Source: Arenibacter catalasegens
Lineage (GTDB): Bacteria > Bacteroidota > Bacteroidia > Flavobacteriales > Flavobacteriaceae
Length of the DNA stretch: 64,000 nt
Assembly (NCBI RefSeq): GCF_002909235.1
Contig: NZ_PHQQ01000006.1
Location: 124,001-188,000 of the forward strand
Direction: 5' to 3'
Part shown: piece after piece, positions 58,396 through 62,242 of the stretch
Layout of the letters: each line of letters begins with the position of its first letter
How positions within the stretch are numbered: the first letter of the stretch is position 1
Notes under the pieces: generated by a model
Seen by the model: the letters and a program-made list of their open reading frames with translations, nothing else
What the model was told of the DNA's origin: nothing
Database searches by the model: none
Program-made: the position numbers and the translations under genes

Positions 58396-58644
58396 TCATT
58401 TATATTTATTAGTCAAATAATTGGAGTATTCAGATTTATAATCAAAATCAGCAGGAATTCTAGTTCCTGTAGAAATGCTTTTTACAAAGGGTGAAATTTC
58501 AAAATCTAGGGAACTTTTTTCAGAGACCAGGGATTGAAGGTAAGCTTCTACTATTCGTGATAAACTCATTTTTTTGTCGGAGGCATATTCTTTTGCTCTT
58601 TTAATTGTCTTCTTATTAAGCCTCAAGGTTAATTTTGTGTCCAT
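58396..58644 (-). CDS. DUF6364 family antitoxin-like protein, without a partner
   Basis: From the ATG at 58644 (MDTKLTLRLNKK), where family members usually begin, the protein has 82 residues. A longer version starts at 58668. The N-terminal KLTLRL strand and IKRAKEYASDKKMSLSRIVEAYL suit a ribbon-helix-helix DNA-binding fold. The tail ISPFVKSIS and DYKSEYSNYLTNKY matches the toxin-binding part of DUF6364. Such genes normally precede a PIN-domain VapC toxin, but none follows here. Confidence 0.8.
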   Translation of the reverse strand: MDTKLTLRLNKKTIKRAKEYASDKKMSLSRIVEAYLQSLVSEKSSLDFEISPFVKSISTGTRIPADFDYKSEYSNYLTNKYK

Positions 58645-58775
58645 TATAAATTCATCCAACTTTATCATAATAAGAAATTATATGTTATTAGATATAAAAA
58701 TAGCAAAAATTTTAAATTTATATTCTTTTGCATATAGTTTGACTATTGTTATCTGTAAATATCGAGATTGTACCC

Positions 58776-59258
58776 CTACCTCAAAACAATCAATTTCCAA
58801 TCCTGTCCGCCTGCATTGTAGGTTTTTAGGTCCCTAAACCCTACCGTATAATGTGCCTCCAAGGAACGCAGGTTGGTGGCATCTACCTCTGTGATGATTT
58901 TGTTAAACCGAGGTTGAAGGTTATTTTTCATGGTCTCGTACCGTTTTCTAAAAATGCCCTGCCGCCGATACTCCTTGTCTATACAGCTTTGCCCCATTAC
59001 CATATAAGATTCCGCTTTGGGCATTACTGTTGCTATCTTCTTGAACATGGGTTTTAACACCTCTATATCGTTCCTAAAACTGGGATGCATGCAAAGCGCA
59101 TAGCCTACCACTTTCTCTTGGTCCTTGGCTATGATATGTGGACAAGCGGTATTCATCTTTGTTAGGAGTTCCAAAGTATGGGATACGGTTACAAAACCTT
59201 CTTTTTCTTCTTCGTCTAAAGGTGTTTGCCCATCATGATAGTTTAACTCTAATCCCAT
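58776..59258 (-). CDS. chimeric gene: start of mobile mystery protein B fused to a duplicated acetyltransferase
   Basis: The first ~20 residues (MGLELNYHDGQTPLDEEEKE) match the N-terminus I recall for mobile mystery protein B, a Fic-family protein. From residue 21 (GFVTVSHTLELLTKMN...) the sequence follows residues 38-177 of the intact GNAT protein at 59899 without gaps. The start overlaps the stop of the mobile mystery protein A gene by 10 bases, as in normal A-B pairs. The Fic catalytic part is absent and so is the first third of the GNAT fold. The acetyl-CoA loop reads EYRRQGIF, but function is doubtful. Confidence 0.8.
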   Translation of the reverse strand: MGLELNYHDGQTPLDEEEKEGFVTVSHTLELLTKMNTACPHIIAKDQEKVVGYALCMHPSFRNDIEVLKPMFKKIATVMPKAESYMVMGQSCIDKEYRRQGIFRKRYETMKNNLQPRFNKIITEVDATNLRSLEAHYTVGFRDLKTYNAGGQDWKLIVLR

Positions 59259-59710
59259 AATGATTTTCTTAACTCTCTTTTAATTTCAATAGCAAGGTCT
59301 TTTATTGTTTTATTGATTTTTTCATCTCCAATTCCTTGGTTCTCTAGTTTCATATTTTGATTGGTCCTCAATACTATTTTTTGAGCCAGTTTTTGAGATT
59401 TTAGGGTGATTAAATTGTCAATGGCTCCATCGTTCGGGACAAATCCATATACAAATTTCATGTCCAATGCATGGCCAACATCTCTTAATTTATTAATTGT
59501 AATTTGGCCTGAAGCTTCACGTTCTTCAATTTTTTGTATCGCTCCTTTTGTTAATTGTAGTTTGGCCCCTAGCTGTTCCCTTGTCATGTTAAGTGTAGTC
59601 CTAATTGCGTTTATCCATCCTTTTTCTGGGACCAAGACCATCTCAGCATCTTTAAATTTATCTAATTTTAGGTCTAGTTGTTCTATTAGTAGTTGTTTTT
59701 TATTTCTCAT
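59249..59710 (-). CDS. mobile mystery protein A (XRE-type HTH regulator)
   Basis: The 153-residue protein matches the mobile mystery protein A pattern: KQLLIEQLDLKL near the start, PEKGWINAIRTTLNMTREQLGAKLQLTKGAIQKIEEREASGQITI as helix-turn-helix (about 30-72), FVYGFVPNDG, and a terminal KSLWD. The family is typically next to a Fic-domain partner B on mobile DNA, acting like an antitoxin or repressor. Here B is reduced to a fused fragment. Inverted operator-like repeats lie upstream. Confidence 0.85.
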   Translation of the reverse strand: MRNKKQLLIEQLDLKLDKFKDAEMVLVPEKGWINAIRTTLNMTREQLGAKLQLTKGAIQKIEEREASGQITINKLRDVGHALDMKFVYGFVPNDGAIDNLITLKSQKLAQKIVLRTNQNMKLENQGIGDEKINKTIKDLAIEIKRELRKSLWD

Positions 59711-59749
59711 TTGTTCTCAATAATATACGTACGATTAAAAAATTAAAAG

Positions 59750-59797
59750 TATACTTATATGTATTCTTTTTTTAAAAAAGGTATACGGATAAGTATA
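59750..59797. promoter_or_regulatory. candidate operator of the mobile mystery protein A gene
   Basis: TATACTTATATGTAT (59750-59764, plus strand) and TATACTTATCCGTAT (59797-59783, minus strand) are inverted copies that differ only in two central bases. They lie 40-87 bases before the gene, a good place for autoregulation by its HTH product. Confidence 0.45.
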
Positions 59798-59820
59798 AAA
59801 TAAATGGTTTATAGAACGTC

Positions 59821-59870
59821 TGCCCCGCTAGTCCGAAGCCCCGCTGGCGCGAGCGTCACCCTAGTTCCCG
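59821..59870. repeat. GC-rich patch, possible dispersed-repeat remnant
   Basis: This 50-base stretch is markedly richer in G and C than its surroundings. It carries CCCCGCT twice (59823-59829 and 59839-59845) and GCTGGCGCGAGCG. I recall similar strings between genes in other flavobacteria, but that is not checked. Confidence 0.35.
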
Positions 59871-59898
59871 AGTCTTACGATTATTCCATAAAATTCCG

Positions 59899-60432
59899 TT
59901 ACCCCAAAACAATCAATTTCCAATCCTGCCCGCCTGCGCTATAGGTTTTTAGATCTTTAAACCCTACCGCATAATGGGCCTCCAGCGAACGTAGATTGCT
60001 GGCATCCACCTCCGTGATAATGCTGGTAAAATAAGGTTGAATGGTGTTTTTCATGGTCTCGTACAGCTTTCTAAAAATGCCCCGCCGCCGGTACTCCTTG
60101 TCTATACAGATTTGCCCCATTACCATATAGGGTTCCGCTTTGGGCACTACAGAAGCTATTTCCTTGAACATGGGTTTTAATACTTCTATATCGTTCCCAA
60201 ATAGGGGATGCATGCAGAGCGCATAGCCCACCACCTTCTCTTGGTCCTTGGCTATTATATGTGGACAAGCGGTATTCATCTTTGTCAGGAGTTCCAAAGT
60301 ATGGGATACGGTAACAAAACCTTCTTTTTCTTTTTCGCCAGGACCTAGGTTGGTAATCAGGTTCTTTTGTTGCAAGCTCAGTATTTGCTGTAATTCGCTG
60401 TCCTTGGTACAGCTTGTAACGACTACCTCCAT
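59899..60432 (-). CDS. GNAT family N-acetyltransferase (intact copy)
   Basis: The 177-residue protein has the GNAT beta-strand and acetyl-CoA loop: VVGYALCMHP, MVMGQICIDKEYRRRGIFRKLYE (pyrophosphate-binding R-R-x-G-x-F region), ITEVDASNLRSLEAHYAVGFKDL. Substrate unknown. The start lies one base beyond the stop of the M61 peptidase gene upstream, so the two are translationally coupled. Bases 59905-60337 are homologous, without gaps, to 58782-59214. Confidence 0.9.
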   Translation of the reverse strand: MEVVVTSCTKDSELQQILSLQQKNLITNLGPGEKEKEGFVTVSHTLELLTKMNTACPHIIAKDQEKVVGYALCMHPLFGNDIEVLKPMFKEIASVVPKAEPYMVMGQICIDKEYRRRGIFRKLYETMKNTIQPYFTSIITEVDASNLRSLEAHYAVGFKDLKTYSAGGQDWKLIVLG

Positions 60433-60433
60433 C

Positions 60434-62242
60434 TTATTCCACTTTTAACCAATCCTTTCTATTTTTTAGTACCTGCTTGCTCGGTTTTTCGCCATCCTTT
60501 TCCATAAGTTCTATGGTATAGGTGGGATCTCCTGTTAAGACAACAGTGGTGGATTTTGGAATCCCGTAACGGGTGTAGGCTACTTGCACACTTTCCCCTA
60601 CCTTAAATGATCCAATTAATTCCCCAAAACTCTGGTTAGAAGTGAGGGGGAAATTGTTTATTGAGGTAATCACATCCCCATAATCTAGCCCTGCGGTATA
60701 GGCTGGACTTCCCATGACGGTATTCCGTTGAATATTGCCCACCCCAAATTGGTTGATGTTTAAACTGGCCCCAAAATAAGGTTTGTCAGTGGCACGCTTT
60801 AGCACTATGCCAACAGATTTGAACAGCTCCTCATAATCGGGCATATCACTGTTATGGATATATTGATCAAAAAAGCGATTTCCAAATTCCTTTCCGGCGT
60901 ATTGTACCAAGGTTAAACGCAGATCGGACAGCGTATAGGGAATTTCCTGTTTCCCATAGGTCTGCCAAACTAATTTCATGTAATCATCCAAGTTCAACTT
61001 GTTTTGTCGCAACGAAAGGTCTAGGGCCAATCCCAAAACACTGCCATAGGAATAATAGGAGATAAAGGTATTGTCCCTATTTACAGGATCTACGGAAGTT
61101 GAGGCGTCCACAAAGGGTGCCTGATAGCTCATTTCTATGGGATTAAAGAACTGTCGGGCGGGCGAGTTCCAAACATAGTTGAAAGTGCCCGCAAGGCCCT
61201 CTACATATTCCTTAGGAGTGATGATGCCTGCGCGACAAAGGATAAAATTGGTGTAATAACTGGTAAAACCTTCCGCAAACCAAAGCTCCCCGCTCATATT
61301 AGCTTCGGCAAAATTGAAGGGTTCCAAAGCCTGTGGCCGAATACGTTCTACATTCCAACAATGAAAAAATTCATGGGCAACGGTGCCTATATTATTTTTC
61401 ATGCCACCTTCTGCGAATCCTTCCCTGTCCGTAAGAATGGTAGAATTTCTATGTTCCATACCATCACCGGAAGCATTGGGAATATAGCATGCCAAAAAGG
61501 TGTAGGTTCCATAATCATAGCTGGGAAGTTCCCCAAAAACGTCTTTTTCGGCCAATACCACTTTTTTCACCTGCTCAAAATAGGTGTCCAGCTCTGCTTC
61601 CGTACCGTTGTGGTGCAATACAAATTCTATGGTTTGTTGCTGGCCATTATGGTCCACTGTAAATTGGCGTAGTCCATAATTGCTGATTTCCGTGGGGCTA
61701 TCCATAAAGTACTGTAGGTTGGGCGCGGTATAGGTATTGCCCATAACCTTGGGCATTTGGGTGGCCACTTTCCAGTTGAGGTCTTCCCGGACCTTAAAGT
61801 CCACTTCTATTTTCCGATTACTTAGATCGGTCACGTACATAAAGGTGGCCGGGATATTTAGATGGGCATGGGTCTCATCTATTTGTGCATAGGTGCCGTC
61901 CCCACGATTGGCAAAAAGGGTATAACTTATCTTCACCTCTCCATCATGACCGCTAATATCCCATTGGTAGGGATTGGGCCTATTAATTTCCAAGGCTTTT
62001 CCCTTGCTATCGGTGGCCCTAAAATTATATACGTTCTTGGCAAACTCGTGCAGGGCATAGCGCCCAGGGGAGGAGCGGCCCATACGTACCGATAGTACAG
62101 CTGCATCCAGCTCGGGAAAGGTCGCTGTGATTTCCGCTTCGTGATGTACGGCATTCTCAAAGGATATGGTGTAGTGGTTGGTCTGACCTTGCAAACTCAT
62201 GGAAATGGCAAGGAATAAAAGGCTAAGGATTCTAAATTTCAT
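60434..62242 (-). CDS. M61 family metallopeptidase (glycyl aminopeptidase type) with PDZ domain
   Basis: The 602-residue exported peptidase has a signal peptide (about 1-20) and an N-terminal beta domain with MGRSSPGRYALHEFAKNVY. The zinc motif HEFFH is at 290-294 with WNVERIRP, and the distal zinc ligand is E324 in ELWFAEGFTSYY. A C-terminal PDZ domain lies at about 490-585 (GSPAYTAGLDYGDVITSIN). It cleaves N-terminal glycine or alanine from peptides in studied members. It is first in an operon with the GNAT gene. Confidence 0.95.
   Translation of the reverse strand: MKFRILSLLFLAISMSLQGQTNHYTISFENAVHHEAEITATFPELDAAVLSVRMGRSSPGRYALHEFAKNVYNFRATDSKGKALEINRPNPYQWDISGHDGEVKISYTLFANRGDGTYAQIDETHAHLNIPATFMYVTDLSNRKIEVDFKVREDLNWKVATQMPKVMGNTYTAPNLQYFMDSPTEISNYGLRQFTVDHNGQQQTIEFVLHHNGTEAELDTYFEQVKKVVLAEKDVFGELPSYDYGTYTFLACYIPNASGDGMEHRNSTILTDREGFAEGGMKNNIGTVAHEFFHCWNVERIRPQALEPFNFAEANMSGELWFAEGFTSYYTNFILCRAGIITPKEYVEGLAGTFNYVWNSPARQFFNPIEMSYQAPFVDASTSVDPVNRDNTFISYYSYGSVLGLALDLSLRQNKLNLDDYMKLVWQTYGKQEIPYTLSDLRLTLVQYAGKEFGNRFFDQYIHNSDMPDYEELFKSVGIVLKRATDKPYFGASLNINQFGVGNIQRNTVMGSPAYTAGLDYGDVITSINNFPLTSNQSFGELIGSFKVGESVQVAYTRYGIPKSTTVVLTGDPTYTIELMEKDGEKPSKQVLKNRKDWLKVE

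What the first reader, a model, noticed from the sequence alone, without database searches (positions are those of the whole stretch)
58776..59258. In-frame chimera of a Fic-partner gene start and a duplicated acetyltransferase
Residues 1-20 read as the start of mobile mystery protein B, and residues 21-160 are collinear with residues 38-177 of the neighbouring GNAT. The junction lies in a shared run encoding EKEGF (about 59200-59217), so microhomology could have joined the two. The start codon still overlaps the A gene by 10 bases, so the fusion would be translated in place of the Fic protein. The copies have diverged visibly, so the event is not fresh and the frame has stayed open.
Basis: partly seen in the sequence, partly recalled or inferred. 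Interest (0 to 1): 0.75.

Follow-up and report, generated by a model that had tools for sequence, protein, structure and literature searches.

The report
Toxin gene start fused to acetyltransferase
In a marine bacterium the first codons of a Fic-type toxin gene are joined in frame to the last four fifths of a neighbouring acetyltransferase gene; it looks like a scar left by DNA shuffling at a spot where toxin-antitoxin genes come and go, and probably not a new enzyme.

Summary
ORF 58776-59258(-) is a two-parent chimera: bases 1-60 match mobile mystery B (mobB) genes at 72-90%, then identity falls to 30-48%; the rest matches the neighbouring GNAT (87.8% DNA). At the junction 14-16 bases fit both parents, in the same frame. 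All 39 other mobA loci examined keep the mobB start overlap; 36 have an intact Fic gene, 3 a broken one, none a fusion.

New here: the two GNAT copies carry different 3' flanks. The chimera's resembles the end of GNAT in G005, the intact GNAT's that of G016/G009/G002/G014/G006. So one tandem duplication need not explain them, and their divergence does not date the fusion. Most likely incoming GNAT-mobA-mobB DNA paired with the resident GNAT on one side and was joined by microhomology on the other; a deletion in a GNAT-mobAB-GNAT array is the main rival. Trees cannot decide and no donor was found. The product lacks GNAT strand 1 and helix 1 and models poorly: probably inert. An ordinary kind of event in an instructive place.

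The parts
58776..59258 (-). chimeric ORF, 160 aa (called the chimera or FUS)
59196..59258 (-). mobB head, codons 1-21
   Evidence: 72-90% DNA identity to 38 mobB rows (35 distinct loci) over bases 1-60
59194..59209 (-). junction: 14 (up to 16) bases compatible with both mobB and GNAT, same reading frame in both
58776..59195 (-). GNAT-derived part, corresponds to residues 39-177 of the intact GNAT
59249..59710 (-). mobile mystery protein A (HTH, antitoxin-like), without its Fic partner
   Evidence: TIGR02612 128.3 bits, cut-off 122.6
59711..59805 (-). region upstream of mobA with near-palindromes such as TATAAGTATACTTTTA; possible operator
   Evidence: function inferred
59867..59898 (-). 3' flank of the intact GNAT, alignable to the GNAT 3' flank of G016, G002, G014 and G006
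59899..60432 (-). intact GNAT acetyltransferase, 177 aa
   Evidence: PF00583 31.3 bits; order BioF-M61-GNAT in relatives; fold
58675..58775 (-). 3' flank of the chimera, aligned to the GNAT 3' flank and hipB promoter of G005
58645..58668 (-). eight codons that resemble the start of HipB, in frame with DUF6364: a second probable chimeric junction
58396..58644 (-). DUF6364 antitoxin-like gene from the start codon that its relatives use; no PIN gene seen behind it
   Evidence: PF19891 from residue 9; five relatives' starts; ORF list
60434..62242 (-). M61 peptidase, conserved upstream neighbour of GNAT

Best explanation
The ORF is a recombination scar at a site downstream of a GNAT gene where toxin-antitoxin genes turn over. 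Most likely a DNA piece carrying GNAT-mobA-mobB from another Arenibacter-like lineage paired with the resident GNAT or M61 gene on one side. On the other side it was joined, through a stretch like AAGAAAAAGAAGGT(TT), inside the resident GNAT at codons 34-39. The result is a full GNAT and mobA, and behind them mobB's first 21 codons fused to the displaced 3' end of the resident GNAT with the resident downstream flank. The toxin body of mobB was lost; its start site, overlapping mobA, now heads an N-terminally truncated GNAT that is probably inactive. Shown: the two parents, the junction, the unlike flanks, no other mobB over cut-off in the genome. Inferred: the order of events, the single step, and inactivity.
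For: Sharp identity switch at the junction. mobB start at the 10-base overlap in 39 of 39 other loci, 36 intact, 3 frame-broken, 0 fused. M61-GNAT order in 14 of 14 relatives' loci examined, BioF also found in 13 of 14, one GNAT in each. The chimera's end and flank align to the GNAT end of G005 as one 556-base match to 58675, with GGGTACAATCTCGA identical at the stop codon; the intact GNAT's match to G005 ends 3 bases past its stop codon but runs 32-38 bases past it with G016, G002, G014 and G006. Its flank scores above all 500 shuffles against G016, G009, G002, G014 and G006. No mobB over cut-off in the genome. TA genes behind GNAT in 7 of 14 relatives' loci and in the window. Chimera model pLDDT 59.7 against 86.3 for the intact GNAT from the same 17 sequences; strand 1 and helix 1 absent. 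The chimera departs from 2 of the 60 columns invariant in 15 relatives, the intact GNAT from 0.
Against: No donor found: mobA occurs in 3 of the 17 other genus genomes and in none of them beside GNAT. The only mobAB found beside a GNAT orthologue has the other order, mobA-mobB-GNAT (G365), which favours the deletion rival. The tree does not say which copy is foreign. By shuffles alone the first 53 bases of the chimera's flank are weak: 15 of 500 reach the score against G005 and 28 of 500 against the intact GNAT's own flank; the intact GNAT's flank against G013 is weak too (33 of 500). A similar hipB promoter also stands away from GNAT in G002, so the promoter match alone does not prove the same site. 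The nearest mobB shares only a 7-base exact run with GNAT at the joint. Inactivity: in leave-one-out 10 of 15 relatives depart from invariant columns at 0 positions and 4 at one, but G010, an intact relative, at 5, so two departures are not decisive. On the chimera's branch 13 of 24 changes are non-synonymous, fewer than the 78% expected without constraint (p 0.01), so some constraint acted, perhaps before the joining; its excess over the other GNATs is not significant (p 0.18 against the intact GNAT, 0.12 against three pooled).
Confidence: 0.5

Rival explanations
1. Deletion: the locus first held GNAT-mobA-mobB-GNAT (by duplication or by arrival of a mobA-mobB-GNAT piece), and slippage or recombination between the similar stretches in mobB and the second GNAT removed most of mobB and about the first 38 codons of that GNAT.
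For: G365, from another genus, has BioF-mobA-mobB-GNAT with a full GNAT 0.2 kb behind mobB, so the needed neighbour order exists. The junction is the same as in the best explanation.
Against: Needs at least two events and an intermediate with two full GNATs, not seen in the 14 relatives' loci examined. The unlike flanks of the two copies still call for a second source of GNAT DNA.
Confidence: 0.33
2. Functional replacement: the chimera is a working GNAT partner of the HTH protein MobA, so a Fic toxin was swapped for an acetyltransferase and the operon is a new toxin-antitoxin type pair, analogous to GNAT toxins such as TacT and AtaT (recalled, no call).
For: In frame, start site and 10-base overlap intact; changes on its branch are less often non-synonymous than random; still over the Pfam cut-off for an acetyltransferase (23.9 against 20.7 bits).
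Against: Strand 1 and helix 1 missing and low model confidence; two invariant residues changed; not found behind any of 39 other mobA genes.
Confidence: 0.08
3. Assembly error joining two loci.
For: Draft genome of 82 contigs, two similar GNAT stretches close together.
Against: The locus is inside a 207-kb contig. The chimera's GNAT part differs from the intact copy at 12% of bases and has its own flank, so it is not a copy of reads of the other gene.
Confidence: 0.03

Closest known systems
Homology-facilitated illegitimate recombination, as proposed for sequential displacement of T6SS effector-immunity modules in Vibrio cholerae (PMC5361080; passages seen)
   Same: A new module enters by homology on its upstream side and an illegitimate joint on the other; the old antidote gene or gene end is pushed downstream as an orphan.
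   Different: Here the anchor is a GNAT gene and the cargo an HTH/Fic pair; the new pair itself lost its toxin body and the displaced GNAT end was captured by the toxin's start. Donor not identified, mechanism inferred.
Mobile mystery proteins A and B (TIGR02612, TIGR02613)
   Same: mobA with the start of mobB at the usual 10-base overlap
   Different: The sequence stops being mobB after codon 21.
GNAT acetyltransferases (PF00583)
   Same: The C-terminal 139 residues
   Different: The first 37-38 residues (strand 1, helix 1) are replaced by mobB's head.

Membership tests
mobile mystery protein B (TIGR02613) | profile match over 124.4 bits, Fic motif | tested here: not met
   No TIGR02613 hit for the chimera at E up to 1; the real mobB of G005 scores 253.9; no Fic motif
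mobile mystery protein B (TIGR02613) | start overlapping mobA by 10 bases (seen in 39 of 39 other loci here) | tested here: met
mobile mystery protein A (TIGR02612) | profile match over 122.6 bits | tested here: met
   59249-59710: 128.3 bits
GNAT acetyltransferase (PF00583) | Pfam score over 20.7 bits | tested here: met
   chimera 23.9, intact GNAT 31.3
GNAT acetyltransferase (PF00583) | complete fold including strand 1 and helix 1 | tested here: not met
   present in the intact GNAT model, absent in the chimera's, where residues 1-40 are under pLDDT 50; only 17 sequences in each alignment
GNAT acetyltransferase (PF00583) | acetyl-CoA dependent activity | not testable with these tools
   needs an assay
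product of homology-facilitated illegitimate recombination | microhomology at the illegitimate joint | tested here: inconclusive
   14-16 bases of the chimera fit both parents, and mobB rows with exact runs of 14-16 to the GNAT exist (5 of 38 rows), but the parental mobB is unknown and the nearest one has 7
product of homology-facilitated illegitimate recombination | homologous exchange on the other side with a traceable donor | tested here: inconclusive
   the intact GNAT's flank is of another allele type, but no donor locus was found and identity along BioF-M61-GNAT names none

The most novel reading that the evidence does not exclude
A Fic toxin was replaced in one recombination step by an acetyltransferase that inherited the toxin's start site and MobA control: toxin-antitoxin operons may gain new effector chemistry by microhomology capture of a neighbouring gene's 3' end.
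Probability: 0.07. Interest if true: 0.8.

Novelty: new member of a known kind. Interest (0 to 1): 0.33.

Why it matters
It is a clear natural example of how a toxin gene can be lost and a chimeric ORF made at one joint whose similar stretch is read in the same frame in both parents, at a place where several kinds of TA genes sit behind the same GNAT. If turnover at such sites works as proposed for Vibrio T6SS arrays, orphan antitoxins such as MobA and DUF6364 here would be traces of past replacements. It also warns that ORFs in such places that still pass a GNAT profile may be scars.

Tried and rejected
The 22-residue head against NCBIfam gave nothing. A plasmid search gave 9 records, best identity 32%. 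A junction pattern in viral contigs gave 0 matches; of 141 loci it is in 7, all taken from the window's own genome and locus (origins). The 81-base stretch behind the intact GNAT that looked like an interspersed repeat has one match in the genome, itself. Trees of the GNAT part: the first, with distant relatives, placed the chimera beside G015 (support 44); the second, without six rows (G015, G001, G007, G010, G018, G028), joined it with the intact GNAT at support 51, and no placement is rejected. NG86 dN/dS between chimera and intact GNAT is 0.16. Paper searches: 'mobile mystery protein' 4 papers, listing and abstract starts seen; 'homology-facilitated illegitimate recombination' 49 papers, 10 listed, one read in passages, one searched for three terms with no occurrence; 'toxin-antitoxin' + 'illegitimate recombination' + 'orphan antitoxin' 0; 'chimeric gene' + 'microhomology' + 'toxin-antitoxin' 0; 'Arenibacter' + 'toxin-antitoxin' 2, listing only. 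No solved structure matched MobA at E 0.001; the mobB of G005 matches Fic proteins.

Full report
What is there. The ORF at 58776-59258(-) encodes 160 residues and overlaps the end of the gene at 59249-59710 by 10 bases. That gene is mobile mystery protein A (TIGR02612, 128.3 bits against a cut-off of 122.6).

The head is mobB. I examined 39 distinct mobA loci outside the window: all 37 others over the family cut-off in a 397-genome family sample and two genus relatives outside that sample (G005, G001). mobA-like hits under the cut-off were not examined. All 39 have ATG at the same 10-base overlap; 36 are followed by a mobB of 197-198 residues with a Fic motif and 3 by a frame-broken mobB. None is followed by a fusion. 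Against 38 full-length mobB rows (35 distinct loci; L094 and the 3 broken ones left out) the chimera is 72-90% identical over bases 1-60 and 30-48% over bases 64-90. The mobB of G005 is nearest, 90% over the first 60.

The body is GNAT. Residues 21-160 match residues 38-177 of the GNAT at 59899-60432 (86% aa over 145; 87.8% DNA over 417). This GNAT follows an M61 peptidase in 14 of 14 relatives' loci, with BioF found in 13 of 14, and is single in each. Relatives of it occur in 131 of 397 family genomes at E up to 1e-20. Its model has a complete GNAT fold.

The joint. The sequence of the chimera compatible with both parents is AAGAAAAAGAAGGT at 59196-59209, 16 bases with TT. Among the 38 mobB rows the longest exact run to the GNAT in this register is 16 in one, 14 in four others and down to 4; the nearest mobB has 7. 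The parental mobB is unknown, so the true length of the shared stretch is not shown. EKEG is read in the same frame in both parents, so a joint within it is in frame.

Two GNAT alleles. The chimera's 3' end and flank form one 556-base match to the end of GNAT in G005 and the hipB promoter behind it, with GGGTACAATCTCGA identical at the stop codon. The intact GNAT's match to G005 ends 3 bases past its stop codon. It runs 32-38 bases past it with G016, G002, G014 and G006, 15-17 with G013, G003 and G015, not at all with G017, and with G009 it ends inside the gene. Flank scores beat all 500 shuffles for G016, G009, G002, G014 and G006, not for G013 (33 of 500). Weak points: by shuffles the first 53 bases of the chimera's flank give 15 of 500 against G005 and 28 of 500 against the intact GNAT's flank, and a similar hipB promoter stands about 3.6 kb behind GNAT in G002. 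I still read the two copies as two alleles of this locus. dS between them is 0.43, against 0.33 (G005) and 0.62 (G003) for the intact GNAT; the AU test rejects none of five placements. Identity along BioF-M61-GNAT does not name a donor: it is highest with G005 in the last part (0.90-0.94 from 61300 on), and with G016 it is higher in M61 (0.88-0.92) than in BioF (0.77-0.85) or GNAT (0.79-0.83).

A TA-rich site. Behind GNAT lie HipBA (G005, G017), ParD, with ParE in three of the four (G016, G002, G013; only ParD seen in G006), and DUF6364-PIN about 1.8 kb away behind another ORF (G014): 7 of 14 relatives' loci with flank. A fifteenth, G001, had too little flank and was left out. The other seven were judged by reading the ORF list only. 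Pfam was run on proteins of G016, G005 and G014, a further ParD of G002 and one ORF of G003, which has no hit. No comparison with random sites was made. In the window the DUF6364 ORF begins with eight codons that resemble HipB's start behind a hipB-type promoter, while five relatives of DUF6364 start at its codon 9: probably a second, in-frame chimeric joint. No PIN gene was seen behind it.

Mechanism. The simplest account is one event in which GNAT-mobA-mobB DNA paired with the resident GNAT or M61 and its far end was joined by microhomology in the resident GNAT, a mechanism like that proposed for T6SS modules in Vibrio cholerae (PMC5361080, passages). Against it: no donor of that order was found, and G365 shows mobA-mobB-GNAT, which makes a deletion route plausible. 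I put the one-step route at 0.5 and deletion at 0.33.

Function. The chimera lacks strand 1 and helix 1 and models at mean pLDDT 59.7 against 86.3 with the same 17 sequences. It changes two of 60 columns invariant in 15 relatives (a Leu to Arg shortly after the stretch I recall as the acetyl-CoA motif, and an Ala to Thr), the intact GNAT none; but in leave-one-out one intact relative, G010, departs at five, four relatives at one and ten at none, so this is only suggestive. The open frame is weak evidence for function: 45% of 5000 simulated copies with 24 substitutions stay open. On its branch 13 of 24 changes are non-synonymous against 78% expected without constraint (p 0.01), and not significantly more than in the other GNATs (p 0.12). 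A product may still be made, since the start site is intact.

Noticed in passing
58396-58668: Probable second in-frame chimera: hipB-type promoter and eight HipB-like codons joined to a DUF6364 antitoxin-like gene with no PIN gene behind it.
   Followed up: partly
L140 3658-6809 (G365): In another genus mobA-mobB sit between BioF and the GNAT orthologue, with a short HTH-like stretch (read by eye) between mobB and GNAT and no M61 match on the contig.
   Followed up: partly
L055 5426-5584 (G011): In a congener only about the last 46 residues of GNAT are left directly behind M61, split over two frames, so GNAT seems dispensable there.
   Followed up: no
L066, L076, L078: Three of 39 mobB genes in relatives are frame-broken behind an intact mobA: loss of the Fic gene with the A gene kept recurs.
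   Followed up: partly
59711-59805 and upstream of mobA in relatives: Near-palindromes around GTATAC; GTATACTT is in 12 of 41 mobA upstream rows (window and repeated loci included). Possibly operators.
   Followed up: no
window 60701-62200 against L033 (G016): M61 is closer to G016 (0.88-0.92) than the genes on either side are (0.77-0.85 and 0.79-0.83), which may mark an exchange of M61 between lineages.
   Followed up: no
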